Origin: Ulota crispa
Taxonomy: Eukaryota; Streptophyta; Bryopsida; Orthotrichales; Orthotrichaceae
Direction: 5' to 3'
Assembly: GCA_963920765.1 (NCBI GenBank)
Contig: OY987247.1
Span: 124,001-188,000 of the forward strand
DNA length: 64,000 bases
A model generated the notes under the pieces. The model saw only the letters and a program-made list of their open reading frames with translations, did no database searches and was not told where the DNA came from. Shown here piece after piece: positions 1,023 to 61,803 of the stretch. The stretch's first letter is position 1; each line of letters starts with the position of its first letter. The translations under genes were made by a program, and so were the position numbers.

Positions 1023-1257
1023 GATCCTGATTGGATAATGGACCCTGTAACCCTAAATCCCCAACCTATACCTCTAAGAGTTATGTGACCATCTTTACTT
1101 CTTGATTGGATAATGGACCCCTATAACCCTAATCCCCCAACCTATACACCTAAGAGTTATGTGATCATCTCTACAAACCTGCAACCCTAAGTAGTCCTAA
1201 ACCTGCAACCTAAAAAAAATGTATCTAAAAAAAAACTAAAACTAGAAAACTATAAAC

Positions 1258-2193
1258 TTGACGTTGAATCGTGAAGCTCCAAGTCACTACGAACTGCCAC
1301 TTCGAGAGAAATGAGTAGAAGGGTAGGAAATAATGTTCTATTTCCTAAATCCAATCTTAGGATTGTGCCTTAGACTGGAAATGTACTTCTGAAAAAAAAA
1401 ATCAAATCATTCTAGATGAAAAATGAAGGAGATGTTTACATTTGAAGTGGAAAAGAAGGTTTTTATTTTTGTGCTGTCCCCCTAAAATTCACAACCCTTT
1501 GTCCAACCTTACATGAAAATAATTATTGCACACAGAGCTGATGTTTGTTTTTTCCATGTAGCAGACCAATGTAGGTTTGTGTGGGAGATTTCTCAATTAT
1601 CATATGGAATTGCACAACACATGGAGGACAATCATAAGTAAAAAAAAAAGTGGAGAATGGCTCAAATAACTGAAATGCTAAGCATTTAATTACTAAAATG
1701 AGAATTGAAATTCTTGATGGTTATAATGTTGTGATAAACCATGCATCAAAATCTTTTGGTTTTGTTTTTTTTCTAAATATTGAAAATTGAGTAAATTAAT
1801 GGACTTCAAAGTTTATTATAGAGTAGAGAATCCATAATTGCCCGCAAACAAAATCTCCTCATAACTTTCATCCCATTCACCAAAATGGAATGATTCAAAG
1901 CTCTCCAAGTATATATAAATCTAAAGAACCAACTTCCCAAAAAAAACTCAAAAAATGTAATTTTTAAACAAGTTCTTTGGCTCCCCTAAACCGAACAAAG
2001 AAAATTACATATCATGCAATAACTTTTGAACCACAAAGTCAAAAGTTATGAAATTTGTTAGACATTAAAGCTACTCCTTGATCACATCATGTGTGAAAAT
2101 TTCAAAGAAAAAAAAACTATAAAACCCATTGGTAATGAGCTGCCCAAAATTGCTATGTTGCCAAAAAAGGGTGTTTTGGCATTTAGGAGTTAA
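1258..2193. mobile_element. TTAA-type non-autonomous element, left end decayed
   Basis: The right end reads TTTGGCATTTAGGAG followed by TTAA at 2190-2193. The interior aligns by eye with the element at 36993-37914: both share the block around GGACTTCAAAGTTTATT, a line about CCCACAAAC then CTCATAACTTTCATC, and a left part with ACTGCCACTT then GTAGGAAATAA. The left terminus has lost the TTAA/CCCC signature, so its position is approximate. No coding capacity is seen. Confidence 0.5.
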
Positions 2194-3470: not shown

Positions 3471-6408
3471 AGCTACAGTACACAAAAAAATTCTAGTGAC
3501 GCAGATGTAAGACCAATGAATACTATTGACATTGCCATAACTATCTGACATGTCCGATCCAATTGGTTCACAATGACTAGAATTCAACTTGAAGTATTGT
3601 AGTGATACTTAGTGGTATACAATAGATTATGTCCTAAACAACTACAATTATAGTTGTTTACAGAGTGCTATTTTACATGTTTTCTTCTACTAATAGCACT
3701 ATGTAATAAACAACAAAGGGATCAAGAGAAGTAATCAACATGAAAAGGCACTGGCTTGCATTGACCAATTGATTCAGAAACAAGAAGCTGAACTAATGCA
3801 ATCTGCAACAAAATTTTTCACTGCCAAGTATAGACAATACTACAGAACCTCTTCTAGAATCCTCAAAATTGTTTGAATTTGCAAAGATCTGTTCAGTGAG
3901 GCCAAATTCAAACCTAAACTGAAGCTACAAGACGCACAAGGAAATTGGGAATGGCCATGAGGAATAGCTACTATCAGACCCTAGATTTGAGGTAGAGTGT
4001 GAATATGTGGGAGTTTGGAATTGGATGGGGCTTGCTGTGAAGACGGCCTCCTAAACCCAAAACCTAGCGTTGCTTACAAAGGAAGACTTTACATCCTTTT
4101 GCCATTGTTATTTTGTGATGATAAATCCTTAGCAAAGCCTCCTTCCTCCATACGATACTTTTCAAAAAACAAATCTTGGACTTGGGAAAAGATGAGGAAA
4201 AAAGAGTTAAGGAGTTACTTACCTCACCCCTCTGCGCATTGATTGCAACAACCGCAGCAAAATTGGGCCACTCTTGGCAGCTTTTATTCTAGGAGAATTC
4301 CACCTTGGAGGCGCGACAAAAGGAGGTTTGCATTGCCCTCGACCCATGCTACCACTTCTTCTTGCCCCTTGCCTTATCCTCTGGACCTCAATTGTGATTG
4401 AGCTCCAATGTTTCTCCCTTCCAAGGATCTCCAATCAGCAGCCCCCCCTAACTCTTGCGTGAAGAACACCCTTGTCAATTTTTATTGAAAGTCAACCACC
4501 CCTCCAACCGCTGTTGCTTTGCACAACTCTTCTCTCGCCACGCCCTTGACAACTCACCTCCTTGTCAATGACTTTGTCAATTTGTGCTTCAGACCATCCC
4601 AAGTAATCGATGTCTAAATGGTGGACATGCATAAGAAGGGCACTTTCATATCAACTAAGGAGATGCTGGGATCAACCAAAATTGCAAATTATTGTTTTTG
4701 CTAAGGGAGGGAGGAAGTATTCTTCTTGGCTGCTTGGCCATAATGGACTATCTATACTGCATCAGATTGTTTGTTGCTTGAAAGCTGTGGACATGACCCT
4801 TTAGAGCTCCTCCTTTGGGTGGGCAGATTGCAGCTTTGTGGGTGACATTTGGGGGTATGGTAGTCGGGTTTTGCAGTTCTCTTGCCTTGAACAGACTGCA
4901 TCAGAGCGGTGTTTGCAAGTTGAGCAAGAGGAGCGCTTAACAAGTGCAACCTTCTAGTTGAGCCTCCTCCCATAATCTCCCCATGGTGATTGGTCGCACA
5001 ATTCAAGAAGAATGTATTCCGCAAGGAGGAATTGACCTCTGCGCTAAAGCCTCAAGGGTCACCCATGTTGAAGCACTCACTCCATTGCAAAATGTATTGC
5101 ACATGCCTTTGGAAGAGGAAACAATGCCAATGAGGGTCCAACACTCTAAAAAATCATAAAGTGCAAGGAGGTAGTCGTCTCTCATGCATCCATACAGTGT
5201 TGGTGAGGCGCAAAATGAAGCATGCCTGAGCTTCAGTTGTGCTGCAATCACCCAAGGGTGCAGAACTTGCTGCCCAAACTTCCACGCTGGCAACGTTGAC
5301 TCTACATTAGACACTGGCAACGTTGACGTCGCTGAATACTTGCATGCACGGAACCGTACACTAACCACTCTCTCCCAACGTAGGCCACCCCTTTTGGAAA
5401 TCATTACCACGCCTCTCTCTAAAAGCACAAAAAAACCCTAAATTATACTCCTGCGTTACTGCCAAATCTACTCTACCGCAACCTATCCACTACTATCAAT
5501 AAGCTTTGGGGCCGCGCCACTCTCTTGCATTGAACCGCGCCACTCTCTTGAATTGAATTGCGCCCAGCCAATAGTGTGACGCGTCTCCCGCCATTTCATC
5601 AAATAGATGATGCCAGCACGGAGTGGAATCACATGTTGACCCTTGATTACACCCATTCCTCCTCTGGATTCCCTGCTTGATGCAAAAATACGTTCATTGT
5701 ATACTTGCCCATGTATAAACAAAGCTAGAAGATTGAAAAACAATCTGCAAATCCTAGCAATCGTTGCATATGGTCAAGGGAAACATTGGTACAAAGTCCT
5801 CCAAAGCCAAGGCAAAGCACAACATGGGAAGGCCTTCAAATACAAGCAAAACACCTTGTATTGCTCACAGCGGCACGTTGTGTCTTTTAGGGGTTAATAC
5901 ACATGGATGAATAGTGTAGTTAATTTCTAAAAACTCTTCAAGGATTGATACTTCTTAAGAAGGCACTTTCAATATACAACATTTTTCAATCATTCAATCA
6001 TGTGATACTTGGAGGGACATATGCATATCATATGCTTATTTGGAAATAATCTTAATGACAAAGCAAGTGTGACAAACAAACTATCCAAAGTCCTTATATG
6101 ATTATCTAAAATAGGCATGATTGCTTTGGCTTACAAAAAGTTTATAATTCATACAAAACATGGAGAGATCTTCAAATTTTTAAGGACATAATAATACATA
6201 ATGATAAGAATAGTTCATTAATAGTTCAATATGACTTTGTGAGTTAGATTGAGCATCTTTTTGTAATTTCTTATAAAGCATTTATGACTCATAAAAATTC
6301 CAACTGCAAAATCAATATTGTACCAAGCATATTAAACTACCAATCACTTTCATTCCAAGAATACAAATGTTTGAAAGCTTGAGTTTAATTTTGTATAATT
6401 ATCAATTA
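3471..6408. other. Spacer downstream of the protease gene, partly GC-richer
   Basis: Between about 4000 and 5650 the base composition is clearly richer in G+C than the surroundings and short ORFs overlap on both strands, but none shows a recognisable domain or consistent splice sites. Small direct duplications occur (TGGCAACGTTGAC near 5286 and 5321; CGCCACTCTCTTG near 5515 and 5538). A TTAA-type element end, CTTTTAGGGGTTAA, lies at 5884-5897; its partner end was not found. From 5900 to the protease stop codon the sequence is plain AT-rich spacer. Confidence 0.35.
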
Positions 6409-9400
6409 TCAAAAATCACAATTATCTGGTTGCCACCGAACTCTGTAATTATCTGGATCAACTTCAATGAGATAATCTCTCATTTGAGTCCCTGAAAACC
6501 CAACTCACAAAACAAATTGGTTATTTGTAACCGTAGACTTAAGAAAACCATTTACTTTTTAAAATGTATTCTTTTAAAAGAAATTACAATAAAACTCACA
6601 CACTTTTAGGACAAATTTTACACAATTTGAGTATAATTTTATCCTTTTGCACAAAATTAGAAGGTTTTCTAAGCATACAATACTAGACATTTTTATTTAC
6701 TAACAAACAACTAAAAATAGATAAAATTAAAACTTGATAACTTCTAGCCAAACATTGATAAAGTTTAGAATTGAATCATTGACTTTGTGGTTCAAAGATT
6801 CACTTGTTATTTTCACTACGTTACTCATTTTAACAATGTAACTTATTCTTGAACAACAAAGAGATTTAAAAAATAATATGCGCTAATATCATTGTATGCT
6901 AAAGTTAGAGTAAAATAAATCAAGATTTACTAATTTTTGATTCCAAGAATAACCCTAAAAAAAGAAGAACAATGGTACTTGTTAAAAGTACTTGATTTAG
7001 AAGATACATTAGATATTTGGAATACCAATTTAAGCGTTACTCTAAATTTTTAAAATTAAGACCTTCTAATTTCTAGAAAATAACTCATATTCAAATAAAT
7101 TTAGATTTCTGGTTTGAAGTTGCATAACAGCATATTTGGGTATAAAGATTGACCAAGACTTCAAAGTTTGATTTTTTGGATTCTAACATTAGTACCAAGC
7201 TCTTTTTGTAAATCCCTTAGTTTCTCTTAAAGAAATGTCACTAGAATGTAAAAGTCATTTTTTGATTTAATGTGTTATGGATTGAACATGTAATATGTGA
7301 TATCAAAGTGGATAATGAATTCACTAATTAATTAGATACTCACTTCCAAGATTAGAGTCTTCTTCAAATACTTTAAATTTCATATCTTCTCCAGAACCTT
7401 GTGTATGTATTTCAAAGTTTGTTAATAAAATGCTTGAGCACAACAATAGTTCATCTTCCTGTTAATATAGTAAACATGCTAAAATGTTAGGAATCCTGAA
7501 ATCCTTATCTTTTTTTAGTGTATTAATCAAAGTGAATATTTCTTGTTATGCATTGTTCTAAAAACAAACAATAATAAACCACTGAGCCAAATAACAATAG
7601 ATATTTGTTTATGTACAAATTGACTAACAAACTCTATTTATTCCAATTATTTCTTTGAGTTTTCACTTTCATAAAAGTAATTTATTCCAAATTATCTAAA
7701 ATTTTATCAATAGAAAAAAAGGAAATAAAAAAAATCATATTAGTGTAAAGATACAAGTGCCATATAGCACAATCATTAGAATGTAAAAATAATTCTCTAT
7801 ATTGTTCATCATCAAGTACTAAGACTTGAATACCTTATACTTGAGGATTGCTTTAGGATTCTCTATTATGACTATATTTTAAGTGTTATTCATAGTACTA
7901 TACACTTAAATTGTGGATTCAAAGATACTTTGATGGATATTTATTTATCATTTCATAAAGTATGAGCCCTTACTTTCCATTCTAGATAATTTCTAGGTTG
8001 AACCACTAGACATTGAGTTGGATTGTGATTTATTATATCAGGGTCTCCTTTGAAGCAAAATGTGATACTTGGAAAATCGTCAACTGGTGATGTTGTTGTG
8101 CCCTGTAATAATAATCACATACAATTGTAAGTTAATTCTTTTTATCAATACATGACTTGTTCAAACAAGACTATCAAAATAATGATAAGCAAGTCACTAC
8201 AACTTAAACACATGTTTCATAATCATTTTACATAAGTTTATACTAGTTGTTCATAGAAATTTCAACCCAAAAAATCAACTCTACACAATATATAAATCTC
8301 AACTAGTTCATGTGCTTCAAGTTATTTCAAAATGCACATTGGATAATTATTTGCACACCTAGCTTTAGCAAAAAAAAAACATATTTTACAAAGCATTATC
8401 AATTTGCTACTTCATTTTTCATAAAGCATTAACAATAGAAAAAGATAATAGAGCAAAAAAACAAAATTTTTAGAAAATAAAACCTTATATTTATTAAGGA
8501 GTATGTGGAGTTGTATCTCTTAAGTAACATGCGTTACCTCTATAAAGTTGAGTCTAAATGAGCTCAAAAAAGGATAAAATATGTATGAACTCTACTACCC
8601 ACCACTACTACTTATTGTAACCTCCATTTATATTGAGACTAATACAAAATCTTTTACATAATCATCCAAATTAGCACTTTGAATTATGTTTTAGGGCTAC
8701 CTCATGCAACTTTCCGTTAAGGCAATTTTCATTTTATGATGTTCTTTTTTTTTAAATGTCATTTATATATGGTTCACACTTTCTAATAACCCCTAAATGC
8801 CCAAGGCACCAAATTTTGGTGTCCAATTTTGTTTAAGAAACTTTGAAACTATGTGCAACGCGCAAATTTGAATATTTTCCGTTTTTTTTTTTATTGGAGA
8901 AGTTATGGGCTGAAAGTAGCTTCAACATCCAATTCTTTTTCAATTGGAAGCTAAATTGCAAGTATACCTTTTGTGTCATGAACAGTGTCATAGAGCCTAT
9001 GACAAGTTGCCTCATTGAAAAAATAGGCATCAAGTTGAGAGAAAAGTGAAGATTTCCCATGAGCACTCCCTTGGGCAATAAGGGCCCTTTTCCTAAAATT
9101 TTGTCATCTAACAAAATCTAAAAGTGCCTTTGGACTAATTTCACTTGGAATGTCTTTGTTATAAAAATTAGAATTCATCCATTGCCAAATTTTCTTTTTT
9201 CTTAATGACTCATAATCAATAATTAAAGCTAAAAAATTCATTTGCATTAGGAAAATGCGCTTTGACAGTTGCGTTGCAAGCTCATTTGTGAAACTGTGGT
9301 CATGGAATTGGAAGGACGGCCATTAGTTTTGAAGTAACAACTGTAAACACTAATGCATCCTAAGTGGTTGTTTCCCAATTTTGTATCCAAAAGTTACCTG

Positions 9401-12400
9401 TTGCGTTAGATGTTTTGGACAGTTCCAATAAAAGAAAAAAATTCCATACTCATCCACATTCAGTCACAAATATCTTAAAATTCGCATGGCCATTTTGGAC
9501 TTTTTTGGTAGTGCCATCTAGAAGCCTTAAAGTTGAAGATATTCTAGTGACCATTTTAATTTGATGTGTAGTAATGATCTTGCAAGGACAATTCAGAAAC
9601 TTCAAAACTACCTTCCACAAACAAGAACAACACCTTTGGGCATTTAGAGGTTAAATTTGAATTTTGATGAATTGGTGACAATGGATAGTTGAGAAACTTT
9701 CTACATTTATTGAATTCTTTGATTATTCTTTTAGTGATATCAACACATATTTATTAAACCTAGATAGATATTCTTTGGCTCATTTTATATGCTCCAATGA
9801 CAAGAACAATGTAAAATTTGCCTCTTTTTATTTCCAATTAAACTTCAAAGGAAACTTTGTAAAAACATTGTATAGGTAGTACGGGTATTGTATTCATAGT
9901 CAATATGTAATCTTTTAAACCATACACCATCTAAATGAAAAATCTTTCTCTAGACTTTAGGATGTTCACCAATAAAAATCTAGGCGTTTATAACTTATTC
10001 ATACAGCATACATATCAACCCATAAAAGCACAGGCAAACGATAAATCATATGCTAGCTTTGAAAAAATATTCTACACAAAAGAAAAAACTCAATTTTTAT
10101 CTGATTTTTTTTTCAAATGTGATCATAAACACATGGTCCATCATGGAAGGCAAAATTAATCTCATCAAATACATTCATATTTGTAAAATTGTAACAAGGT
10201 GTTTACTTTCATACTGCCTTTTTTGCAATTTTTATGAGGTCAACATGTATTGCTAAATTTTGTAGCTTTTAGGAACTATAGTACAAGCTAGGCACCTGCC
10301 AAAGCACTATAGCTCTACAGGGCAAGGTAGGCCACTGATGTAAGCCCAATGATTAAGGGTTAAACATGCTTAGATGTGATTGGTTTTTACTTGTTTACCA
10401 TTATTTATTTATAGTTTACATAGCAATGACAACCAGTAAATGGATAACAACAAGAAATCTTTTAGAAAACATCCAATGGAATATGATTTTGAAGGCATCT
10501 AATAGAGCCTTTTGCAAGTTTGTGGTTTTCTAAACTTTAACAATTGCTTAAATGGTACGTATGATACAATAACTAGCATCAAAAAAGTAGATCATATGAT
10601 TTTTACAATTGTTAGGTCTTATTCATCAAAATCTAAAAAGTTGCCCAAAACCAATAGGTAGGACAAATTATAATCTTAGCAAATAAAAAAAGTTTGACAA
10701 TCTTAAAAGTTAAGAAATCATTCCCACAATTTTGCAATGAAAGATACCTTACTATTGCAGGGTTCTCTTTGCCACTTATTACCATTTTAGAAGCTTAAGA
10801 AATAGTTTGAGTTCTTTAAAAAAATAACTCTTACACATCTAGAACAACCACAATTTGTGTGTATGTATGTACCTTGGGGGCAATCCAACATTGTCTACGA
10901 TCTGTATATTGGAAATCGAGGTCACTTTCGGTTTCAATATATCCTTTCCCCTCTGCATGAGAATCAAGCTGCTTCCAAATGTTTGACTTACATGTCAATT
11001 TGGAATATATCACAAGACAAAGTGCAACAAGTAACATATAAGCACTTGTAATTTTAGGGTTTAGGATTTAGGGTTTAGAAATTTTTATTTTATTTATATT
11101 GAATTCATAATAAATAAAGGAAATTGATAAGGGCACACTCAAGGTTTGATATATGCACACCCCTCACGGGGTAAATATTAGATTTTTACCATCAAAAAGC
11201 TGCATCTGAAAATCTTGAATTTAGATTTGGACTTAGAGACCTTGATTTTTAGTCCAGAATCATAAGTGAGGTTACAATTGAATAACACCCAATGAAAAAG
11301 CTTAGCTTTTCTTACAAACAAAATTTAAATGTAATGTTTTCACCTTTGGCAAAGCTTTTTCATTGGGTGATGTTCAATTGTAACCTCCTGTATGGCTATA
11401 GACTAAATCAAGGTCTCTAAGTCCAAATTTGAATTCAAAATTTTCAAATTCATCTTTTTGATGGTGATAATCTAAAATATATCCCTAAGAATGTGCATAT
11501 ATCAAACCCAAGGTTTGACCTTATCAATTCCCTAAATAAATAAAATTTATTATCATTTCAATAGACTTTGAATCTCAATATGTAAAAGATAAAGACAATG
11601 AAAGAATGTACTTTTCTTGTGAAATCCGCATAGAACCAAGAACCCAAACGTGTTACCATGGCTCCGGTATCAAGGGTAAGAGGCACACCACTTGTAGGAG
11701 GGTAGTGAGTTTTGCCTTCAAATATAATATAATTTAGTATGGCATTCACTGCACACCATAACCTCCTGCACTCTTCAACAAAAAAGTAGCATTATTTAGT
11801 GGTGCTAGGACAAGGTCAATGCTCTAAGTGAAGAAAACAAAGTTGACCATATTCAAGTATTGACGATAAAAAGATATTTCATTTAACTAGACCTGAACAC
11901 AAAAATAGAAAGGAGATCTTGACATTATCCCAACTTTTCTCTTACAAAGGTGACCTTATCCGAGCATCATTATAATTTGGGTGAAACATAAATTAACAAG
12001 AGCCACTCAAGGAATAATACTTACTTTTTTGTTTGACAAGTTTTCACAAAATCTATATCAAAACAATTACTCTTTTTTGAAATCATGAAAAATAATTATT
12101 GTGTATTGTTTCTCTACTTTAAAAAAAGGTTTGCAACAACACATGAATGAATTCTCGCTTCTAAGTTCAACATCAAATGGACTAATATACAACTTCTAAC
12201 AAGTCCTTTGTATTTTTTTTATTATGATGCTCAAATTATTGAGTTAGATACCCGTTGTTGAAATTGATCAAGTTTTGAACTGAACATATTGTAATTGATA
12301 ACATTGAGTAAATTTAAGATTGATACACATGAAATTGATGCTGTCATTGAATAAATCATTATACCAAAATATCCACAAAGGACTCAATTAAAGACCTCAA

Positions 12401-15400: not shown

Positions 15401-18400
15401 TTTGAGACAAACAAAAATTTCATTTGTCTAACTCTTTTGTGTGTTCTTTAACCCTTTTTCTTTTGTTTTTCAAAGGGCACAAAGTTGTCACAGACATAAA
15501 TTTATATACAAAAAAATTTAAAAGATAAAAATTCACCTTTGGAAGTGGCAACAAACAAACTTGTTTTCAAACTTCAAGCATTATGATCTTGCAACTACAC
15601 AAGTTGTTTCAATTTTTCATTTATTGCGTCCCCCATTAATAGTGCTAATTTGCACTAATCCAAATAGTATATGAATAGTTTGGAAGGCTCCTTACTGAAG
15701 TAGTTTGTAGTAATTTAGATTAACTCAATATACTATGGATTACAAAATTTGATTACTACCTCAAAAAGCGTGAGTCAAGTGGCCAAACTTTTGAGAAGAT
15801 TTAGCAAGCATGTATCTCAACTGAATAGAGAGTGTGAAAAATGTTCCATTATAGGAAGGGTGCCACCATGTTGTTGCTTGACAAACAACAAAAATTTGTG
15901 ATCAAAACTTTACTTGGAGGACAAGGGCAAGCAACATATCATACCTTCACACTAACTAGACAAAATTCACCAAAACAAAAGACTAGTGAAGGGGTCTCTC
16001 ATTTTTCAATGTTGCATACTAAGAAAAATAACTTGTGCAATACCAATTTGTTCTAAAAATGCAGGATGTATTTGAACAAACTCAGCAAAATATCCAATCC
16101 TCCAATTAGACCCATCAATTACTTATTTAGAAAAAGTTGGAGGTTTTAGCCTTGCTTTTGGGCAGAAAAGAGTATTTCATAAATAGGTTTGGGACTCAAA
16201 ACACTTAACCCTTAGACAACCAAACAACCACAGGGGATAGTATGTATGGTGCCGTATGATTCATTTGCTACCTACAAATAGTTTTAAATTTGCATCTTGA
16301 CTAGCTCACTAGAACCGCATTGATCTATATTCTAGCTTCTTTGTTGATCTCAAATGTAGTAATGCTATGGGTGCATTCTAAATACAAGAAATATAAATTG
16401 TATTGTATTGCTTGCTATGGTGCGCTCAGACGTTTAAGGGCTAATTTTGAAGTGTTATTAGTAGTGTAGAAATTGAAATACATACATAGTTTGTGTGTGT
16501 GGCAATTACCCAAGTACTCCTTGCCCTGTAACTTCCATTTTGTCTGAGGTTGGTAAAGTGAAGCTCTCCCAATAATAAGTACCCTTGTATTTTGATCCGT
16601 CTCCATAATCAATCCATGCTAAGCATTCTAAGTTGTGATGAGTATCACATGGTCTATACCATCCATGAGGATAGTGTTGGTGCTTTCGGCATAACGTTTT
16701 GTCTTTTCCATAACACTTTATTGGTTCCATGTTCCTTGGCTTAAAATATCCATGAGGTCCCTGCATCATCACAATTAACATCATTTCCATTCACCCTAAA
16801 AGGCCCAAGTTCTTTCTTCTGTAAGACACATTAAAAACCACCACTTTTAGGGGAATGGGTAGAAAAGAAGGAAAAAAGTTTGTTCTTGAACTTTAACCAT
16901 AGGATCTTGTCCTAGATTACAAGAGGTGTTTGTGGGAAAAAAATTAGCTCATTTTAGATGGAGAGGAGTGAGATGTTGACACCTAAAGTGAAGAAAAATA
17001 TATTTTTTTCCTTCTTGCCCAAAAATTTCAGAAGCCTTTGACCACTCTTATAGCAAAAGAATTGCTTTGCACAAAGTTGAGACTTGATTACTCAAGGTAA
17101 AATGACCTCAAATGAATTGGAGGTGTATAACATACTTCAAAAAGTCTTTGAATGCCAGAAGGTTGTAAATTTTGCAAATACATGAGGCAAAATTGGAGGA
17201 TTTATGTATAATTCAGTAATTTGAATTACAGGGATCCAAACATTGAGAACCAAGGTATCCTAATCCACTACAACTTGGAAAAAAATCAAAAACAAACACA
17301 CAAACTGTTAAAAAATGTAGAGTACAAAATTTTCCAAGAGGCAAAAGGAATGGACGTAAGGAATCTCCCAAAAAGAGCCCCTTCCACTCCATACCCCTTT
17401 GTCCTAGTGTCCACACCTTGTGCCCACGGATAGGAGCTGACCCTCTTTGGAGTCAAAACTCACTTACAAAAGAGAAACCTTGCCCAAACTGCCCCTCCTC
17501 CCCTAGTTTTGATAAATTTTTGCTCAACTTCTTTGTTAAATGTTGGAATGAAGAAAAAATTAGATGGCCACAAAGGCATTTGAATTCCCATTTAGTTTGA
17601 TAAAAGTTTCAAAAAATCACACAAATTAGTTTAGCTGTAGGAACATGCCAAAATCCCACTTGGCCCTCAAGGGGCCACTTGGGCTTTTAGAGGTTAATTT
17701 GTGAATGCCCAACCAGTCATAATATTTGCTCCTTGATAGTGCTCTACAACAACATGGCAAGTGCCCACCCATTATAAAATTTGTAATAGTCAACATTGCA
17801 TGATGGCCTCACAAAAATTGCAAGAAGGGCACCATGAGACCTAACACAATGTCTTTGAATTTTTTCACAATTTGGGTTACCCAAAAGTCATGAGTACATT
17901 TGGTGAGGTTTTTTTTTGCCGTCCATGATGAACCATGAGTTTATGATCTCTTCCAAAAAAATCATATGAAAAATGGCCTTTTCTTGTTTTGCAGATATTT
18001 TTGTCATGCACGAGATGAAAAACATCCCTTTGGCATGTAAGGATCAAAAGTGCACATGATGTTTACAAAGCGCTTTTAATATTTCAATAAAAGTGTACAC
18101 AATGCTTTTAAAATGTTGTCATCCTTGCAAAAGCAAAGCCAGTATTGCCACAGTTGCTAACACATTCACAAATCTTTTTTACTTCACATACAAACATATA
18201 GTGAGAAAAAAAAGAAATCAATATTTATAAACACAAGAGTAAAACTAAAAATTAAAAACCTTTGCTTTTAGAACTAGAATCTAGTATTGTTGTAAATGCT
18301 AAAAAACATTAATTGTTTAAAATATTTGCACTAGGTGTTTGAAGCCTTGCAAAGAGTTGTTTGTGACCTCCATCAAATGTTTTAAAAGGTTTGTATTTTA

Positions 18401-28264: not shown

Positions 28265-31200
28265 TATGCAGGCGGTTCAAATCAAGAATTATGCAATGGG
28301 GCTTATTAATTAAATATGTCTTTTCATGTCAATCTATACATCTTCTACACTTGATATTGCATTTAGGTTGCCTTGACAATGAGGTTGCCTTACATTGGAA
28401 AACTACCTCATGACTCACCACTTGGCCACTTGGAGGTGCATGCAACTTTCTAGAAACTGGAGTTTCACATGACTAGTAACTTAATAGCTGCTATTTTGTG
28501 GTTCTAGAGCTTCGTTGTTGTTGCTAGACCTTTTAATATTTTTTTATTGCAATAATTATTGATGAATATTATTGTAGCAGAGCTAAATATTTAAATAGTG
28601 TAAAATGTAAAGATATTTGCGTGAGGCAACCTAAACGCAATATTTAGTGTAGTTTTAGATTTCAAATTCAAATTTGAAAAAAATTCACAGGGATTCATTT
28701 CAATTGTCTTTTTGTCTCCATCCTCACTCCTTTGTATTCAATTCAAATTACAAATTAAGAGCTATCTAATAAAGTTCATTAAAATTGTCCTTTCATCTTC
28801 CAAATATGAGGTAAATCGGTCACTATAGGTTGCCAACGTGAGTTTTTTTAATTAATTGTAGATGTTATATGTTGTGAACTACCCAGCTAATACAGTTGCC
28901 CAGCATTTGTATTCTATTATGGAAATTAGATACAATTTATTGGATTTTTGAATTAATTTCAAGGAAACATTGTCAAATTGGATAGTTTTTGTAGGTTTGG
29001 ACGTCTTGATTTGAATAAATTTTTGTCATTGTGGACAATTTTAGTCATTTTGACACATTTAGTCAATTTGGACGTGTCAATTTGGACTCAATGTCTAGTG
29101 ACACGGCTTGGAGATATTAGATTTGACCAAAATACCTCAACCTTTGAAGAATCCAAAATCTTGTTGGCTTGTTATATGAACACCCACGTGTATTTTTGAC
29201 ATTTATGCTCTTGAACGACCAAACATCAATCAAATTGTAACCTTTTAGTTATTTTTTGTTGTTGTTGTTGCTGCTAATAGCTTAGATAGCCTATCTACAT
29301 GTCCTAAAATGGTTCATTTGCCTAAATCTTCCACAGCACATTGTTTTTTTAAAATTAGATTCATTAATCTATACCACTTGAATATTGACTTGCAAAAGCT
29401 TTGCTTGTTTGTGCAACTTTGAGTAGAGGGTGTTATTAACCCTTAAAGATGCAAACATTTTTTTGATGAATGACAAAAAGACAATTTACTAGATGTATGA
29501 AAGTCAATTTTCATCCATTTCACCTTTAAAGGCCTAATTGTTCCCTCAAGGACAAATGGATTTTGGGCATGAACCTGTAGCTAAATTACTCAATGTGATT
29601 TTTTGAAACTTTTATTATAGGTGGAGAATTTCAATACTTACAACGAGATCTAAGTTTTACTTCATTCCAATACTTGAAGAAGAAGTTATGTAAGAAATTT
29701 TAGAGCCTGATGGGAATGGGCAACAAGGATAGCAACTTTTTTTGTCTAGTACTCGAACAGATGTTCATGTTGCCCCTTGGATTTTGCTTTGCCTCCAAAA
29801 ACATGCAGATTTCAATCTACTTCTCCAATGAAAAGGACAAATATAAAGTCTTTGACCTACAATTACAAAGCCCAATAATACCGCCAGATAAGCAAAACGT
29901 GATCTGCCACAATCTATGCTTGATGCAGAGCATTTAGAAGGACAAAGGTGCAAAGTCTAACCAAGACATATGCCACTAACATCCCTACTATGATGTACAA
30001 TTCCACTTTGTGCTGCGGTTTTCAGGTATCGTGATAAATTGCTGATTCCCATTTTTTGGTAAAATGAAAGCTATATTGGAGACATTTTGCAATGTCAAGT
30101 TGTGCAGTTGATTTTGAATTACGGGAAGACAATGTTGGAAACCAAATTTCACAAAAACTCTAATGGGTTGGAACTACTCGAATACTTTCAATATTAGAAA
30201 TGTATGGTAGCCTTGTTTTGTGCAGCTAACTTCAGATAGCAAGCTTTTGTGTTTCTGGTGCAAAGTCGAGTAGACACCTGAGAAGCCATGTCTTACTTTG
30301 TACCACCATGCAACTATGGCATGGTAGAACACAATCTCAGACGCTTTGAACATTGTCACCAGGTGAATTTGCCCTTTCTTAAGTGACTTAACCTCAAGTC
30401 TATCATTCATTTTTCTCACAATGAGCCATCTCAACCAATACACATGTGCTTCTCAGCCCTTTTTTTTGGGCCTCATGGGCCCAAAAAACACCACTTGAAA
30501 AAAGCAAGCAAAAAGACATAAAGGAAAATAAAGAAAATACAATAAAAATAGCCAAACAATAGCTTAGGGTTTTAAAGGTACGCCCAAAAAGCTTCAGCCT
30601 TGACCGTAGTTGTTGCCACTTCTGGAGATTGTGCAACATCTCTTATTTTACTTTAGACACTATATTGCTACAAGTTGCAAGACAACCTCGCCTCCATGAA
30701 TGAGTTTTTATATTTGTGAATATTCTAACATTTGCAAATATGGAATTGCATTGTCCATTTTCTTACAAAAAGTCTACCAAGTGCTAGATGACATCATTAT
30801 TTTTAGAAAATTTGCCCTTTTTGCTTGAATATAATTGTCTCTAGTCCCTAGAGAACTCAACAATTTTGAAAAGTGTAGCCACTTCAGTACAAAAAAAATT
30901 CCCTCAGTGCCAGAAACTATCACCAATTTTTAGCACACTATGCTAGATTCACCATATCTACAATTCACCATATCTACAATCCACTATTGCCACCACAATT
31001 TATTGATAGATATGAAGTACTCAACATGTGGGCAACAGTTCAAAATACAACGTAGCCAATTTGGCTTTTTGCCAAAAACCAAAAGAAAAAAGCTAATGCT
31101 TTTGCTTAATCTTGGGACTTATGTTGAAATCAAATACGTGTTATTAAGAAGAGTGCATGTAACTTGAGAATTGCATTACCCTGTTATGGACAAAAGCTTT

Positions 31201-36988: not shown

Positions 36989-37918
36989 TTAACCCCTAAA
37001 GGCCTAAGCCTTTTTTTTTGCAAAAATCATTGAAAACTGCCACTTTGGGGGGAAAGAGCAGAAAAGTAGGAAATAAAGTTCATTTTGCAAATCCAACCAT
37101 AAGATCTTGCTCTAGACTATGGGAGGTACACGTGACAAAAAATTAGCTCATTCTAGATGCACAAGAGTGAGATGTTGACAAGTGAAAAAAAAAGTTCTTT
37201 TCCTAATTGCCAACAAATTTCAGAAGCCTTTGACCGCTCCTATATCAAAAAAATTGCTCTATGCAAAGTTGAGGTTTATTTTTTCCATGTAGAAGACCAA
37301 ACTAGATGTGTGGGAGAATTTTCAAATCAATTGGAACTATACAACACATGAGAAAACAGAGTAAGTTAAAAGAAGTAGAGAATGAGTCAAAACACTAATT
37401 TGTTAAGAATTGAATTCTTGAAATGAAATATGCAAATCCCCATGGCTATAATGTTGTGATAAACAATCTACTTCTTGAGGTTTAGTATTTTTTCAAAAAT
37501 ATAGAAAATTGTGTAAATCAAAGGACTTCAAAGTTTATTTTAGAGTAGAGGATCCTTAATTGCCCACAAACTAAAACATCTCATAACTTTCATCTCATTG
37601 ATTGAAATTGAACGATTCAAAGCTTCCCATGTCTAAAAAAATTGAAAGAACTAATTTCGGATTTTCATTTTTTAAAAATGCAATTTTTAAAGAAATTTTT
37701 GGACTGCCCAAATTGCCCTCTTTCCCCTGGTTTTAATTAATTCTTGCATAATTTGTTTGTCGAATGTCATAATGAAGAAAAAATCAAGTGCATGTGTAGG
37801 TTTAGGAGTTCCCCACCTTCAATAAAAGTTCTAACAATCACACAAAACAGTTTAGCTATAGGTATGTGCCCAAAATCCATTTGTCCCCCAAAAGCACATT
37901 CAAGTCTTTAGGGGTTAA
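36989..37918. mobile_element. 922-bp TTAA-type non-autonomous element with intact TTAA flanks
   Basis: TTAA (36989-36992) is followed by CCCCTAAAGGCCTAAG, and the right end CTTTAGGGG is followed by TTAA (37915-37918). The terminal inverted repeat is perfect for nine bases (CCCCTAAAG) and then diverges. The interior aligns by eye with 16794-17693 and 1258-2189, so this is the best reference copy of the ~900-bp subfamily. No ORF of transposase size is present. Confidence 0.7.
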
Positions 37919-37997: not shown

Positions 37998-38740
37998 CTT
38001 GCAATATCCATCCCTAGGTATCCATCCTTGGATACCCATTCCTAAATACCCATCATTGGATACCCATCCTTGAGTACCCATCTCCGAATACCCATCCTCA
38101 GATACCCATCCCTGCATTTCCATCCAAGCTGCATACCCATCCCTAGATATCCATTCCTGCATATCCATCCCCGCATACCCATCTTGAATACCCATCTTCG
38201 CATATCCATCCTTGAATACTCATCTCCGCACATCCATTCCCACAAATCCATCCCTGGCTATCCATCTCTGCATACCCAACCCCAAATATCCATTCCCAGA
38301 TATCCATCCTTGCATACCCATCCCCGCACACCCATATCTAAATACCCATTTCTAAATACCCATTTTTGCATATCCATCCTTGAATACTCATCTTTGCACA
38401 TCCATTCCCACATATTCATCCTTGGCTACCCATCTCCAAATACCCAACCTCGGATATCCACTCCCAAATATCCATCCTTGCATACCCATCTTTAGGATAT
38501 CCATCCTTGCATACCCATCTTCAGGATATCCATCCTTGCATACCCATCTTTAGGATATCTATTCTTGCATACCCATCCCCACACACCCATATTTGAAGAC
38601 CCATCCCCGCACACCCATCTCTAAGTACCCATACCCACACATCCATCTCTGATTACTCATCTTTGCATACCCATCCCTGCACACCCATCTTTGATTACCC
38701 ATCTCCGCATATCCATCATTACATACTCATCTTTGAGTCT
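37998..38740. repeat. Satellite-like array, ~12-bp unit (ATACCCATCCTT / CATATCCATCCC)
   Basis: About 740 bp, roughly 60 units of a 12-bp motif TA[CT]CCATC plus four variable bases. Adjacent units alternate ACCCATC and ATCCATC, giving a 24-bp higher-order period. Three copies of a 33-bp block with AGGATATCCATCC lie at 38485-38565. Both strands are open over long distances because the period is a multiple of three; these ORFs are not called as genes. Confidence 0.85.
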
Positions 38741-41222: not shown

Positions 41223-43400
41223 ATGGGTGAAACGGCGGTATCGTCGAGGAGCAAGCGAAGGTTACCCAGGCTTGTCGAGGAGCAGGTCAAGGATCCTGCG
41301 AAGGTAGTAAATGCCGAGGATGAAACGGAAGAAGCGGCGGAGAGGAGGGCATTAAAGAGAGGTCAAAGTGTAAGGAGTAGCAAGCGTAAAGGGAAGCAGG
41401 CCGAGGAAGAAGTAGTGATGAGGGAGTTGATGGGCACCAATGTGGTGGACATCGTGTCGCTTGAACTCGGATTGCTTAAGTTGAATGACGACTGCTATGG
41501 GAATTCACGTTCCTCAGGAATTGTCTTGAATGCAGTGTCGCAAGAGTTTGTGGCAAACATGGAGAGGTCTCTCGCGCGAGGTGACGATGCCGCGAGTGCA
41601 AGCAGCAGGTGTGCTCTCGTCCTCTTCAAATTATGCTACATTTTACTCGGAACTTCATCCAGCAAGCTCCAGATGAAGACTTGTGTGCTTTTTCAAGTTT
41701 TCACATCCAACTGATCACTGTGAAACCATGAGTTCCTTGGTTAAATGTTTTGAGAGAACCACTAAAGGTAGTGTTTGGTGCAAGTGCATTGTTTTTTCAT
41801 TGCGTGGAGTATCGGTGTTTGCTGAGCGGCAAGGGAGACGAAGATGACAGCGTGATGGACCTTGAAAGCGTAGCAGAGCAAGGATATACAAGCACGGCTC
41901 TCAATCAAAAGGATCTAGCATTTTTGGCTGAATTGATGCAAGTAATCCAAGGTGTGTACGCTTGGTTTTGTGTTTTATAATGTCTGTACGAAAGCCTTTG
42001 TTGAATGTTTGCTTGTAACGAGGACTCACAGAAAACTCAACTTTCTTTGCAAAAGGTGGTGATTGGAAAAAGCTCTCAGTACCTCATATGAATGCATACT
42101 TGCGCCACCATGGGCTTCGCATTTCTGGTTGAAAAAAAGTTCTTGGGATCCGTGTTGAACAGCACTTGAAGTAAGGTTTTTTCTTGCTATTTGTGTCAGC
42201 CAAACTTTCTCAATTTATATTGCACCAATGTAGCTAAGCGAGAACCCTTTCATTTGTGGTCTGCGTATTTTAGAATCAAAGATGGGCAAGGAGAAGACAT
42301 TCACCCGAGATCGTCTTTTATCATCAATTGCCAAGGTAAAGGAACTCCAGCAAAAAATAGCTCATATTTTTTTGAAGCATACAGCCCATCTTTTCATATC
42401 AGTTTTGCCCATGCAAAGGCTATTTAGACTAAAATTGGCATGCAATTCCATCTTTCTGCATGGGTGCTGTTTTTTCTCTAAGCTAGTGATGTTTCCTTGC
42501 AGGTGACGCATGTCGTGGAGACACTATTCTATTCTTGCAAACTGTTTATGATTTGTGAGTTGTTTTCCCTTCTTGGTTGGATCCTTGATCCGTCTTGCTT
42601 GAAGAGGTTGACATTCAGCATATTGTTTGATATTGCTTTGAGTTCTTTTGTTGTTGAGGCATTCTACTTTCACAAATGAGATTGCATATAGTGGATACTA
42701 TTTCTATTAAGTACTCGCTTTAGAAGCTTAACCTCAAATTGGCATTATAATTTGACCTTGATATTGGGGTATGTATGATATTGTTAAATGAATTGCCAAT
42801 TGTCGACCCTTGGGAGGGTGTTGGATTGCTGGTAAGGTTGTGCACGAGAGCTATGGTGCCAAAGAGCAGCAACACACTTTTACCGTGAGTAAAAGTTCAA
42901 AGTTTCCTTATGTCCCTTCATTGGATTGCAATGTGTTGACATCTTAAGTACTCTCGTGTTGCCCACAAGTATTTATATGTTAATGCTATTACCGCGGTAA
43001 ATCTTTATTGTATATTGCAATGTGCTAGATTGAGGTCTTGTGGAGCACGGGTACAAAGCCTTGTCACTTCATGCGCCAGCTTCAAATCGAAGGTCAAGAT
43101 TTGTATTGCATGCACACTTGAAGACAGGTGCGATTTCCAACCTCTCTTCATTTTTCTGCCAGTACAAACGTTTCTGCTTTTGAAAACTGACATTACTTTT
43201 TGGCAAGTCATATACTTACAACGGTTGCCATGTTGTGTAATTTGTGACCACCACTAGAGCAGCCATGGATTAACGAAGAGGATAGAGTACCGGTGCTGGC
43301 CGAGAAGCATGAATGTGGTAAAGGTGCTCGTGAAGAAAGGAACGACACGAAGTTGAAACCCAAACGTCTATACTGGCCGAAAAACATGAACGTGGTGTAG
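41223..43400 (+). pseudogene. SAP-domain protein resembling plant CCCH zinc finger protein 62, with in-frame stops
   Basis: Plus-strand gene with exons 41223-41608, 41827-41951, 42056-42170, 42274-42335, 42503-42554, about 42792-42884, 43029-43127 and 43263-43400. Phases agree at every junction except the unresolved start of the sixth exon. Exon 1 encodes a Lys/Arg/Glu-rich, nuclear-type N-terminus. Exon 3 encodes a SAP-like helix-extended-loop-helix (MNAYLRHHGLRISG then KKVLGIRVEQHL), a DNA/RNA-binding fold. Exons 4-5 give IKDGQGEDIHPRSSFIINC and GDACRGDTILF. Exons 6-8 give IAGKVVHESYGAKEQQHTFT, IEVLWSTGTKP and VPVLAEKHECGKGA. This order is that of plant CCCH62-like proteins as I remember them; the CCCH finger itself is not seen here. 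TGA codons interrupt the SAP exon (42130-42132) and exon 7 (43119-43121), and another precedes exon 6 (42789-42791). It is therefore probably a pseudogene, or its consensus sequence is wrong. The part from 42382 on is repeated at 60400-64000. Confidence 0.65.
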
Positions 43401-44578
43401 AAGCTTGTAACACAAGTAGACAAAATCACTTGAATTCCAAAGGTCCGCATTTGCAGAGTGTTTTTTTCTACCTAATCATTGTAGTTACTTCACCCAAATT
43501 TCAGCTGTGTCGTTTTTCTTTTGTCTTTGCTCGTCTCTTTCCTCCATACCAAAGTTTCCTTCTTGGAGAATCCTCCCAAGATGATCATAATCAAGACTCC
43601 CTTTTTTATTCAACTTTGCTTTTGCCAAACAAGTCATTTTGTTTTACAAAATTTTCACTCCAGTACTAATATGTCATATTTAACTAAATATGGATTAATT
43701 TATGTATGTATTTTCTTTCTAAGCTCTTGATCAATATGTCGCCTATGTTTTTTCCAAAGTTTTGGCATGTCCTCTAATTTAGGCATGTCTCTTGATGTTT
43801 TATAACCAACTTCCAATGTCTTGCAAGTACCTCCTAAAGTTTTGCAAACCAAACTTTCTAGACTGTTACTTATGGACTTCAGGTAGCCCATATCATATCG
43901 ATAAAATCACCGTGACCTCTTAAATATCACATCTTCAATCTCTGTGATATAATTATAGAAAACAAGAAGATAGCTGTTGAGGTTGAGGTGACATTAGAGA
44001 GGGCGTACATAGTGATATTAAGCAAGTCACAATTTTATTGCTTCTCTTTGCTTCACTTCATTGCTTTTCAGAATTTTGTGATTTTAGGGAAAGCTTTGTA
44101 CTTTCACAATTTCACTTCTCTATTGCTATTACCAAATGATTTGAAAACATTTTGTTACATTGAAATGTTTTTGGATCTCACAACAATTCAAGTTATCAAT
44201 AAACAAAAATTCTAATAAAATTCTAATGGTGAATACCGCTAGTTTGGTTTAGAATCTTACTAGTAATAAGACTCCTCATCCTTGTTGTTGGTTTTTGGGA
44301 CAAAAAAAGGGGGATCTAATTCTAGGCCATGCTCAAGGTTGCCTTCAAAAACTCAACACCAGGCAAACTCATCTTGCAATATGCCAATGCAAAGTTCCAT
44401 TCAACAAGATTCTCAACAAAAGGTTTACATGGGCAACAGCAATGTTGCTACATCCTCTTGTTTATTGCATATTTTGCAAAACTTTGTGTATCATGAAAGA
44501 GGAGAAGATCCCTTGTAGCAACAACATGGTGGTGAGGTTTTTCAATCTTCCTTACTTTCCAACAGTTTTCAAAGACAA
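43401..44578. other. Spacer downstream of the SAP/CCCH62-like gene
   Basis: AT-rich, inside the inverted duplication. No gene recognised. Confidence 0.35.
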
Positions 44579-44719
44579 GGAATCTGTCATGTGGCATGCT
44601 CCAACAACAAATGCAAAAAGGCTGGTGCCAAGCACTGCGTTTGGCAATCGTGTGCGATGTGCTGTTATAAGAACAGCTCTTCTTGAGGGAGTTGTCCACT
44701 TGGAGGTTATGATGACAAT
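44579..44719 (+). pseudogene. Cysteine-rich, zinc-finger-like exon fragment with a stop
   Basis: In one plus-strand frame the sequence reads CHVACSNNKCKKAGAKHC, then VWQSCAMCCYKNSSS, a TGA, and GSCPLGGYDD. The cysteine pattern C-x4-C-x7-C-x4-C-x2-CC-x(8)-C looks like a zinc-binding module. The frame upstream is Ser/Gln/Asn-rich and is interrupted by a TAG just before a Gln-Gln-His run. An overlapping open frame of similar length exists, so this call rests on residue pattern alone. The second copy is at 61663-61803 on the minus strand. Confidence 0.25.
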
Positions 44720-48456: not shown

Positions 48457-48785
48457 GTAACCCTTAAACACTAGGCTGGTCACCATGACCAGCCCAACAA
48501 TTACAATATTATTTTTTGAAGTTGCAAAACTCAACAGTGCATGGTGCCCTCATGAACTTTGCAAGAAGGGCAACTTGGGATCTAACCACCGTGTCCCTAA
48601 ATCTTCTCATAATTTGAGTTACCTAAAAACATGAGTACATCTAATTAGATAATTTGTTGCTTTTCATGATGGACCATGTGTTTATTTTTACTTTTGAAAA
48701 GAAATCAAATGAAGAAAAGCTTTTTCTTGCAGTATAAAAACTTTTTTAGGAGCCGAAGGCCAAAAATGTCCTCCTCAGCACTTAA
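48457..48785. mobile_element. ~320-bp element related to 17698-18044
   Basis: GTAA then CCCTTAAACACTAGGC begins the element, and the TTAA at 48782-48785 closes it and also opens the next element. Ordered blocks shared with 17698-18044 include CAAGAAGGGCAACTTGGGA, TTTGAGTTACC, CATGAGTACATC and CATGATGGACCATG. Terminal inverted repeats are weak. Confidence 0.4.
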
Positions 48786-49441
48786 CCCCTAAATGCCCAA
48801 GGCATCACATTATGTTGTTGACAATACTTTGAACTTCTAAAAAACCTAACTCAGTTGCTATTTTTAGTATATTTTATTTTTTAACTATTCTTTTTGAAGT
48901 TTAGTTTTAGCATCAAAAAACCAATTTTGTAAATGATTGATTATGCATTTTCTATTCAAGATTTTGTGTAAGGGTGTCCATTGCAATCTTGATTTTTTTA
49001 GTGTTGAGAGCTCTTGGAAAGGAGCCTCAAATACACTAGACCTTGGAGAAAATTTCACACTAGAAATTCATTTTAAAAAATTGTAGAGGAGATTTTGAAA
49101 AGCTATAAATTGATTGGAGTTATTCATGTTATGTCGTTTAAGCCCATATTTTTCATGTGACCATTTTTTCAGATTTGACATGTGAAGAGTAGATTGAAAG
49201 ACTTCAAGCCATTTTCACAGATTTAACATCCTCTAGATCAAATATAATAATCTTTCAATCCATAAATGATATTGTTGTGTTTTTATTTCTTGTGTGATCT
49301 CTAACATATGTAGTTTGATTTTATATGGTTACAATTTTAAGAAAACTAATACAACTTATCAATATTTTAGCTTTCTATTCAACTTAGAACAAATTCCTAG
49401 AAGCTCAAAAAGTGCCTTGGGCATGGACATTTAGGGGTTAA
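48782..49441. mobile_element. 652-bp TTAA-type element with intact TTAA flanks
   Basis: TTAA (48782-48785) is followed by CCCCTAAATGCCCAAGGCATC. The right end reads GTGCCTTGGGCATGGACAT then TTAGGGG and TTAA (49438-49441). The ends pair over CCCCTAAATG and CCCAAGGCA with six extra bases in the right arm. The same left-end sequence is at 8790. No transposase ORF. Confidence 0.7.
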
Positions 49442-59388: not shown

Positions 59389-59613
59389 TTAACCCTTAAA
59401 TGTTTGAGCGTGCTGTTGTGACTAGTACAACATGAGATATTTTTCTTGTATTTGGAATGGATCCACATCTTTACTACACTTGAGATCAACAAAGAAATTG
59501 GAATATAGATCAATGAGTTTCTAGTGAGCTATTCAAGATCTCAAATTAAAACTTCTTGTTGGTAGCAAATGCCAATTATATGACAAAATATATATTGTGC
59601 CCTATGGAGTTAA
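59389..59613. mobile_element. 217-bp TTAA-type MITE (copy 2)
   Basis: TTAA (59389-59392) is followed by CCCTTAAATGTTTGAGCG, and the right boundary ends TATGGAG then TTAA (59610-59613). It aligns by eye in reverse with 16209-16440 over nearly its full length; its right tip is shorter, lacking the terminal TCTAAGGG of the other copy. Confidence 0.6.
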
Positions 59614-61662: not shown

Positions 61663-61803
61663 ATTGTCATCATAACCTCCAAGTGGACAACTCCCTCAAG
61701 AAGAGCTGTTCTTATAACAGCACATCGCACACGATTGCCAAACGCAGTGCTTGGCACCAGCCTTTTTGCATTTGTTGTTGGAGCATGCCACATGACAGAT
61801 TCC
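61663..61803 (-). pseudogene. Second copy of the cysteine-rich fragment
   Basis: Inverted duplicate of 44579-44719, identical including the internal TGA. See that entry. Confidence 0.25.

What the first reader, a model, noticed from the sequence alone, without database searches (positions are those of the whole stretch)
36989..37918. Family of TTAA-flanked elements with CCCCTAAA termini, resembling piggyBac MITEs in a plant-like genome
At least six elements share ends TTAA-CCC(C)TAAA...TTTAGGG(G)-TTAA: 36993-37914, 48786-49437, 8790-9650, 16794-17693, 16209-16440 and 59393-59609, with a decayed relative at 1258-2189. TTAA target sites and termini starting CCY are hallmarks of piggyBac. This superfamily is not well described in plants, so a TTAA-specific MITE family here would be notable. 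Interiors fall into several size classes (about 900, 650 and 230 bp), as expected when several deletion derivatives use one transposase.
Basis: partly seen in the sequence, partly recalled or inferred. Interest (0 to 1): 0.75.

Follow-up and report, generated by a model that had tools for sequence, protein, structure and literature searches.

The report
piggyBac MITE swarm in moss-like genome
Short non-coding DNA elements in this plant (probably moss) genome are deletion derivatives of piggyBac, a "jumping gene" family best known from animals, and the plant carries full-length piggyBac relatives with the same ends as well as a very large number of these short copies.

Summary
Element 36989-37918 is one copy of a ~930 bp non-coding family whose conservation stops at TTAA|CCCCTAAAGGCCCAAG. 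At that very copy, 15 of 15 fetched empty paralogous sites hold one 4-bp unit where the filled site has two TTAA; another copy has ATAA on both sides and ATAA once in one of two empty counterparts. The genome has 30,972 exact TTAACCCCTAAA versus 77 for the reversed control. PF13843 (piggyBac transposase) gives 120 match rows, all above cut-off. Transposase-bearing elements share both ends with window families: an 8.8 kb element with family A (36989-37918), 5.5-5.7 kb elements with family B (8786-9654). Their transposases match solved piggyBat/piggyBac; catalytic aspartates are intact in 8 of 11 loci. Corrections: more than one transposase is behind the size classes (A and B clades ~39-40% identical); the ~230 bp class is linked by ends only. 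The host is a plant, probably a moss. PiggyBac in plants is already named in print, so the news is scale and anatomy, not a new kind.

The parts
36989..37918 (+). Family A non-autonomous piggyBac element (element proper 36993-37914), flanked by TTAA on both sides; longest stop-to-stop frame of the family consensus is 60 codons
   Evidence: both ends match a PF13843-bearing 8.8 kb element
36989..36992 (.). Left copy of the 4-bp target site (TTAA)
   Evidence: 15 empty paralogues show one 4-mer here
37915..37918 (.). Right copy of the 4-bp target site (TTAA)
8786..9654 (+). Family B internally deleted piggyBac derivative: bases 2-61 and 311-869 match the left end and right end of the 5.7 kb transposase-bearing element E48 (left target copy reads ATAA)
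   Evidence: 88% over 60 bp, 80.7% over 565 bp, E 3e-146
48782..49441 (+). B-like 660 bp element with perfect TTAA-CCCCTAAATG ends; interior differs from 8786-9654; 40 scored genome matches, 4688 first-look candidates
16790..17697 (+). Diverged family A element; left target copy reads TTCA
   Evidence: 81.9% and 78.3% to A consensus at its two ends
1254..2193 (+). Decayed family A element, left end lost
   Evidence: 1281-1986, 77.7% to A consensus
29519..29699 (-). Family A right-end fragment
   Evidence: 78.0%
16205..16444 (-). Family C ~230 bp element with TTAA/TTAG and CCCTTAGA/CCCTTAAA ends; no transposase-bearing relative found here
59389..59613 (+). Family C ~230 bp element; 42 genome match rows from 40 scored of 3480 first-look candidates
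5886..5897 (-). Single exact TTAACCCCTAAA end followed inwards by AGACACAACGTGCCGCTGTGAGCAATAC (C-like by eye); no partner end identified

Best explanation
Families A and B are non-autonomous piggyBac elements (MITE-like, 0.65-0.93 kb). SHOWN: they lie between two copies of a 4-bp site that is mostly TTAA, empty sites have one copy, and their ends are the ends of transposase-bearing elements in the same genome with a piggyBac-type (DDE_Tnp_1_7, DDD) gene. INFERRED: a piggyBac transposase made elsewhere in the genome bound the CCCCTAAAnGCCCAAG ends, excised the element by the hairpin cut-and-paste route and inserted it in a TTAA; the elements arose from full-length copies by internal deletion, then multiplied and decayed. 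A and B were moved by different members of two sister transposase clades that share the CCCCTAAA end. Family C is assigned by its ends only.
For: Sharp conservation edge at TTAA on both sides in 29 copies; 23 of 29 left and 18 of 29 right flanks are TTAA, 16 both, plus one ATAA/ATAA. Empty sites: 15 of 15 paralogues of the finding's own site show one 4-mer (TTCA 13, TTCT 1, TACA 1); for the L037 copy 10 distinct places (some duplicates of each other) show one 4-mer, TTAA in 8 and TTAG in 2. PF13843: 120 rows from 116 scored of 528 candidates, best 1.3e-73. Full elements: E60x 1027-9855 carries A's right end (84% over 180 bp) and A's left 354 bp (80%) around a PF13843 gene; E48 1490-7235 and E57 2171-7626 carry B's two ends around one. 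PDB: piggyBat 9c0f E 1.7e-16, piggyBac 6x67 3e-13; D268/D346/D447/D450 equivalents intact in 8 of 11 loci. Tree: A plus B transposases form one group, support 1.000.
Against: In 13 of 29 A copies one or both flanking 4-mers are not TTAA. The 15 empty paralogues read TTCA-like, not TTAA, so there the target must have become TTAA by mutation before insertion. One of L035's two empty counterparts (L021) does not read ATAA, and the empty alignment for L015 is poor. 110 of the 120 PF13843 rows contain stops; of the 10 without, most are partial or split and the longest (C4:3591922, L043) lacks one aspartate, so no complete working source was shown. Only 1 full A-type and 2 full B-type elements with both ends in hand (E60x; E48, E57, the last with TCAA at one side); E41 and E67 gave one clear matching end each. 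E60x is 8.8 kb and may hold nested inserts.
Confidence: 0.95

Rival explanations
1. Tc1/mariner-like (Stowaway-like) elements ACCCC...GGGGT that duplicate TA and merely prefer TTAA; filled and empty TTAA sites would look the same.
For: With a TTAA target, a TA duplication gives the same filled and empty sequence (reasoning), so most copies cannot tell the two apart.
Against: The L035 copy has ATAA on both sides, so the base after GGGG is A where this model needs T, and one empty counterpart holds ATAA/TTAT once; a single copy, so a mutation there is possible. The linked full-length elements carry PF13843, not a Tc1/mariner transposase.
Confidence: 0.02
2. TTAA belongs to the terminal repeat of another superfamily (hAT, Mutator) with its target duplication outside it.
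For: None found.
Against: In 12 clean copies no duplication of 3-10 bp lies outside TTAA (0 of 12; one 2-bp match; identity close to shuffles). Empty sites show only 4 bp gained besides the element.
Confidence: 0.01
3. The shared CCCCTAAA motif is interstitial telomere sequence (plant repeat CCCTAAA), not transposon ends.
For: The window has CTAAACCCTAAA runs near 750-850, 11053-11078 and 53132.
Against: The motif bounds homologous interiors as inverted pairs at many unlinked places (40 scored for each of three families); 30,972 TTAACCCCTAAA against 77 reversed, spread along C1 in the places listed.
Confidence: 0.01
4. Family C (16205-16444, 59389-59613) is an unrelated TTAA/CCCYTAAA MITE family moved by something else.
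For: No transposase-bearing element with C subterminal sequence was found among those fetched; one right end (59613) departs from CCCCTAAA.
Against: Same TTAA plus CCCYTAAA arrangement, and other piggyBac clades in this genome have CCCTTTA- or CCCTTCA-type ends.
Confidence: 0.2

Closest known systems
piggyBac (IFP2) of Trichoplusia ni; solved transposase 6x67/6x68
   Same: TTAA target, CCC-starting short inverted ends, DDE_Tnp_1_7 transposase with the four aspartates, Cys-rich C-terminal tail in E48 and relatives (by eye)
   Different: Transposase only distantly alike (phmmer 3e-13); elements 5-9 kb rather than 2472 bp (PMC10813416, passage); plant host; long upstream frames that were not compared with the solved protein
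piggyBat of Myotis lucifugus (host recalled and in the listing of PMC11707139); solved 9c0f
   Same: Best solved match to the E48 transposase (E 1.7e-16)
   Different: Mammalian host; distant sequence
piggyBac-related MITEs of animals (corals PMC2872659; Pokey mPok1/mPok2 of Daphnia PMC4912750; search listing only)
   Same: Non-autonomous short elements discussed beside piggyBac; Pokey MITEs live beside full-length copies
   Different: Animal hosts; sequences not compared here
'PiggyBac' MITE class of angiosperms named in PMC10004981 (passage)
   Same: Superfamily and plant kingdom
   Different: Only listed there in the passage seen; no sequences compared. A survey of 207 plant genomes classes MITEs in five superfamilies plus Micron and its main text does not contain the word piggyBac (PMC12550479, passages)

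Membership tests
piggyBac superfamily | 4-bp TTAA target site, one copy when empty, two when filled | tested here: met
   16 of 29 A copies keep TTAA on both sides, one has ATAA on both, 12 are changed on one or both sides
piggyBac superfamily | Short terminal inverted repeats starting CCY | tested here: met
   A consensus CCCCTAAAGGCCCAA at both ends; transposase-bearing loci with CCCCTAAA, CCCCTCAT, CCCTTCA- and CCCTTTA-type ends
piggyBac superfamily | DDE_Tnp_1_7 (PF13843) transposase in elements with the same ends | tested here: met
piggyBac superfamily | Catalytic aspartates D268, D346, D447 (and D450), numbers recalled | tested here: met
   all four kept in 8 of 11 loci; L047 lacks two, E57 and L043 lack one each (aligned to a recalled T. 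ni sequence; D447/D450 region also)
piggyBac superfamily | Cysteine-rich C-terminal domain | tested here: inconclusive
   CQCCGTRC..CPMCGDVYLCIGDC..H pattern in E48, similar in several others (by eye), but no Pfam domain called there and only insignificant stretches to the solved proteins
piggyBac superfamily | Seamless excision restoring TTAA | not testable with these tools
   needs excision products or pedigrees
MITE (non-autonomous, non-coding, high copy) | No transposase, short, many copies, ends of a known full-length element | tested here: met
   A consensus longest frame 60 codons; 8896/4688/3480 first-look candidates for A/B/C, 40 scored each; full-length partners for A and B, none for C
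Tc1/mariner (Stowaway) | TA duplication and Tc1/mariner transposase | tested here: not met
   ATAA/ATAA copy L035 (one copy); transposase is PF13843
hAT, Mutator | 8 or 9-10 bp duplication (recalled) | tested here: not met
   none of 12 clean copies; 4 bp only
PIF/Harbinger | 3-bp TTA/TAA duplication (recalled) and Harbinger transposase | tested here: not met
   A TTA duplication with unequal ends (ACCCC...GGGG) cannot be told from TTAA by the sites alone; the linked transposase is PF13843, which decides it

The most novel reading that the evidence does not exclude
Some mosses carry an old, plant-resident branch of piggyBac that split into several transposase lineages (five in 11 sampled loci), gained an extra conserved upstream coding region that Pfam does not know, and became a leading DNA-transposon class of the genome, with on the order of ten thousand CCCCTAAA-ended copies, some lineages possibly still able to move.
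Probability: 0.35. Interest if true: 0.65.

Novelty: new member of a known kind. Interest (0 to 1): 0.52.

Why it matters
piggyBac is a standard seamless gene-delivery transposon and, as far as I recall, is described mostly from animals and fungi; one large plant MITE survey has no class for it (PMC12550479, passages). A plant genome with about 116 scored piggyBac transposase loci of several lineages and some 31,000 matching ends makes two questions testable: when and how piggyBac entered land plants, and whether plant TE annotation has been filing TTAA-ended MITEs under other names.

Tried and rejected
Rejected: TA-duplicating, longer-duplication and telomere-motif readings. Looking for the transposase in the window and loci L001-L038 with a T. 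ni piggyBac protein gave nothing significant (best E 3.9); it had to be sought genome-wide. Ten window ORFs against Pfam gave one sub-threshold hit. A text search for the terminal motif gave, in the 20 of 622 papers listed, only unrelated sequences. The two 'piggybac' counts in the moss paper PMC10619864 include the word 'piggybacking'; I saw no transposon use in the 12 of 18 passages shown. The 14 control genomes ring in 0, but names only Synechococcus among them, so they seem to be prokaryotes and that zero says nothing about other plants. Empty sites for 48782 and 8786 were not found: no scored match ran through the junction beyond a few bases (40 scored in each). Paper searches with the word piggyBac; with TTAA and TSD but not piggyBac; on moss genomes.

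Full report
WHERE. The window is bases 124001-188000 of contig C6 of a 274.8 Mb, 157-contig genome. The genome is a plant's: PF00504 (light-harvesting proteins) gives 56 matches. One of these proteins is closest in the PDB, apart from a long LHCI-2 chain (9vfj_2, 523 bits), to chains of 8htu and 7xqp (444 bits, against 430 for the best AB80 chain, 1vcr). The listing names no species; I recall those two entries as the moss Physcomitrium patens, so 'moss' is a lead, not a test. Pieces of family A or B lie in 4 of the 6 fetched light-harvesting loci (L077, L078, L080, and a 54-bp piece in L079), so the elements belong to the plant and not to a contaminant.

OBSERVATION. The listed elements are there. 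Two of the seven have perfect TTAA-CCCCTAAA ends on both sides, the rest are imperfect. They form three families. A: 36989-37918, 16790-17697, 1254-2193 and a fragment at 29519-29699 (77.7-86.9% to the A consensus). B: 8786-9654, with 48782-49441 sharing its ends only. C: 16205-16444 and 59389-59613 (76.7% alike). In the genome TTAACCCCTAAA occurs 30,972 times (15,477 + 15,495) and its reversed control 77 times. First-look candidates for A, B, C number 8896, 4688 and 3480, of which 40 each were scored; these are rough sizes, not copy counts. A library of the families and full elements covers 7.8% of the window, including one ~460 bp palindromic repeat at 11086-11543 that may not be piggyBac; the window was picked for these elements, so this is no genome estimate.

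BOUNDARY AND TARGET SITE. In an alignment of 29 A copies with flanks, conservation stops at TTAA|CCCC and GGGG|TTAA. Left flank TTAA in 23 of 29, right in 18 of 29, both in 16; one further copy, L035, has ATAA on both sides. Five of the 29 (L010-L014) share flanks and so belong to one segmental duplication. In the 12 clean copies left after dropping these five and all copies with a changed 4-mer, no 3-10 bp duplication lies outside TTAA; identity of the outer flanks is close to shuffles. Empty sites: the flanks of the finding's own element, joined with one TTAA, gave 27 matches, 12 of them half-matches at filled sites and 15 running through the junction. All 15 have one 4-mer in place of TTAA-element-TTAA (TTCA 13, TTCT 1, TACA 1); within 12 bases of it two have a single-base gap and one is cut short by the end of the match. 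None of them reads TTAA, so the lineage that took the insertion must first have turned TTCA into TTAA; that fits TTAA choice but is inference. The L037 copy sits in another repeat, of which 10 distinct places (some duplicates of one another) show one 4-mer, TTAA in 8 and TTAG in L001 and L003. L035's counterpart in the window shows TTAT (ATAA) once, while a second, L021, is diverged there. For L033 and L038 the empties are also single but sit among other A copies with gaps, and for L015 the alignment is poor (all). L035 matters because a TA-duplicating element with A...T ends would look the same at TTAA sites but not at an ATAA site; a 3-bp duplication with unequal ends cannot be told apart by sites alone.

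TRANSPOSASE. PF13843 in the own genome: 528 first-look candidates, 116 scored, 120 match rows, all over the cut-off, best 1.3e-73; 110 rows contain stops and 10 do not, most of the 10 being partial or split, the longest covering 2-340 and 30-349 of 349 positions. I fetched surroundings of 27 of these loci, for 20 of them at first only about 2.5 kb downstream and for 4 of the 20 then the rest. Complete or nearly complete elements: E39 (L042+L039), 1463-6489, TTAA-CCCCTCATCGCC ... and TTAA-CCCTTCATTGCC at the other end. E48 (L048+L068), 1490-7235, and E57 (L069+L057), 2171-7626 (TCAA at its right side), with CCCCTAAATGCC ends; E67 (L070+L067) gives the same right end clearly, its left end not. 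E60x (L074+L071+L060), 1027-9855, with CCCCTAAAGGACC / CCCCTAAAAGACC ends; E41 gives an A-type right end at 7937. Other downstream ends: CCCTTTA-type (L043, L049, L058, and with changes L045 and L066), CCCTTCA-type (L050, L054); 5 of the 20 downstream stretches (L051, L053, L056, L062, L063) gave no candidate end and several others no clear one.

LINK BETWEEN WINDOW ELEMENTS AND TRANSPOSASE. Window 8786-9654: its bases 2-61 match E48's left end (88%) and bases 311-869 match E48's right end (80.7% over 565 bp, E 3e-146): an internal-deletion derivative. Window 36989-37918: its left 347 bp match E60x's right end (76.9%) and its right 178 bp match E60x's left end (73.5%); with the A consensus 79.7% and 84.4%. 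48782-49441 shares about 20 terminal bases with E48, E57 and E67. Family C was not linked.

THE PROTEIN. E48's frames match PF13843 (2.6e-59 and 3.7e-7), the first solved piggyBat (1.7e-16) and piggyBac (3e-13), the second piggyBac (2.5e-4) and piggyBat (9e-4). Aligned to the recalled T. ni protein, the four aspartates are kept in 8 of 11 loci; L047 lacks two, E57 and L043 one each. In a FastTree of 11 loci and the T. ni protein the three B and two A transposases form one group (support 1.000; B 1.000, A 0.999), E48 being 40% and 39% identical to the two A proteins, while L043/L045, E39/L047 and L044/L046 fall outside. So CCCCTAAA is, in this small sample, the end of the A+B clade, and more than one transposase is behind the size classes.

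MECHANISM. Shown: 4-bp duplication, mostly TTAA; shared ends with full elements; transposase type. Inferred: trans-mobilisation, hairpin cut-and-paste, origin by internal deletion, seamless excision. Age: 24 A copies outside the duplication differ by 9-18% pairwise (median 13%), median K2P to consensus 0.085 over 29 copies; the fetched A copies are old and no recent burst was seen, but they were chosen by similarity to one diverged copy.

EXTRA. Upstream of the transposase domain, by about 1.6-1.8 kb, E39, L043, L045 and L046 share a region around Y-x-x-R-Q-I-A-K-L-L-G-W (blastp E 7e-13 to 3e-4 in five of the six pairs); the three of these frames tried (L043, L046, E39) and E48's own upstream frame have no Pfam match up to E 0.1. 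Whether it is an N-terminal extension or a second protein is open. L044 has a gap of about 270 bp inside the domain, perhaps an intron.

WHAT IS KNOWN. PiggyBac as TTAA-specific and CCC-starting, with rare other 4-mers: PMC10813416 (passages). 'PiggyBac' in plants is named in PMC10813416, PMC10140906, PMC10794571 and PMC4438587 (passages), a small annotation line exists for the fern Ceratopteris (PMC6890710, passage), and PMC10004981 (passage) lists PiggyBac among angiosperm MITE superfamilies. The main texts of PMC12550479 (207 plant genomes) and PMC9033089 do not contain the word (passages seen). Searches with moss or bryophyte terms (15 papers, 25 of 1,651 listed, 5 papers) listed no paper whose title or abstract start concerns piggyBac in mosses; the library holds open-licence papers only. 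Hence 'new member of a known kind' at unusual scale, not a new kind.

Noticed in passing
window 42382-45982 and 60400-64000: Two 3.6 kb arms, 100% complementary, 14.4 kb apart and running to the window's edge; copies of 36989 and 48782 recur mirrored on C6 at 192464 and 205893, so a long inverted duplication (real or an assembly artefact) covers much of this region.
   Followed up: partly
window 8676-9764: Flanks of the 8786 element recur near many chromosome ends (C1, C2, C3, C4, C7, C8, C9, C10) as half-matches spaced about an element apart: probably a subtelomeric repeat carrying a fixed piggyBac derivative.
   Followed up: partly
L039, L043, L045, L046 upstream of the transposase: Conserved region around RQIAKLLGW not known to Pfam, about 1.6-1.8 kb before the transposase domain in several piggyBac clades.
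   Followed up: partly
window 11086-11543: Palindromic repeat (arms 11168-11248/11405-11485) that also occurs inside the full piggyBac elements E48, E57 and E60 in both orientations; perhaps a nested foldback element.
   Followed up: no
window 21889-22808: ~920 bp foldback structure built of three nested inverted-repeat pairs (122, 127 and 193 bp arms, 83-95%), with a TTAA-flanked perfect 14-bp inverted pair inside at 21947-22750.
   Followed up: no
window 26747-27528 and 38022-38735: Minisatellite arrays, 23-bp and 14-bp units; the second begins about 100 bp after the finding's element.
   Followed up: no
window 750-850: Short telomere-like CCCTAAA runs.
   Followed up: no
L001 1501-1732, L021 3266-3497: A further ~232 bp TTAA-ended kind with CCCCTAAACGGCCC / CCCCTGAACGCCC at one end and CCCCTAAAGGCCCCTCGGGC / CCCCTAAAGAGCCCTTGGGC at the other, by eye distinct from A, B and C.
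   Followed up: no
G000:C4:21389882-21501121: Cluster of equally scoring light-harvesting protein genes with family B pieces between them.
   Followed up: no
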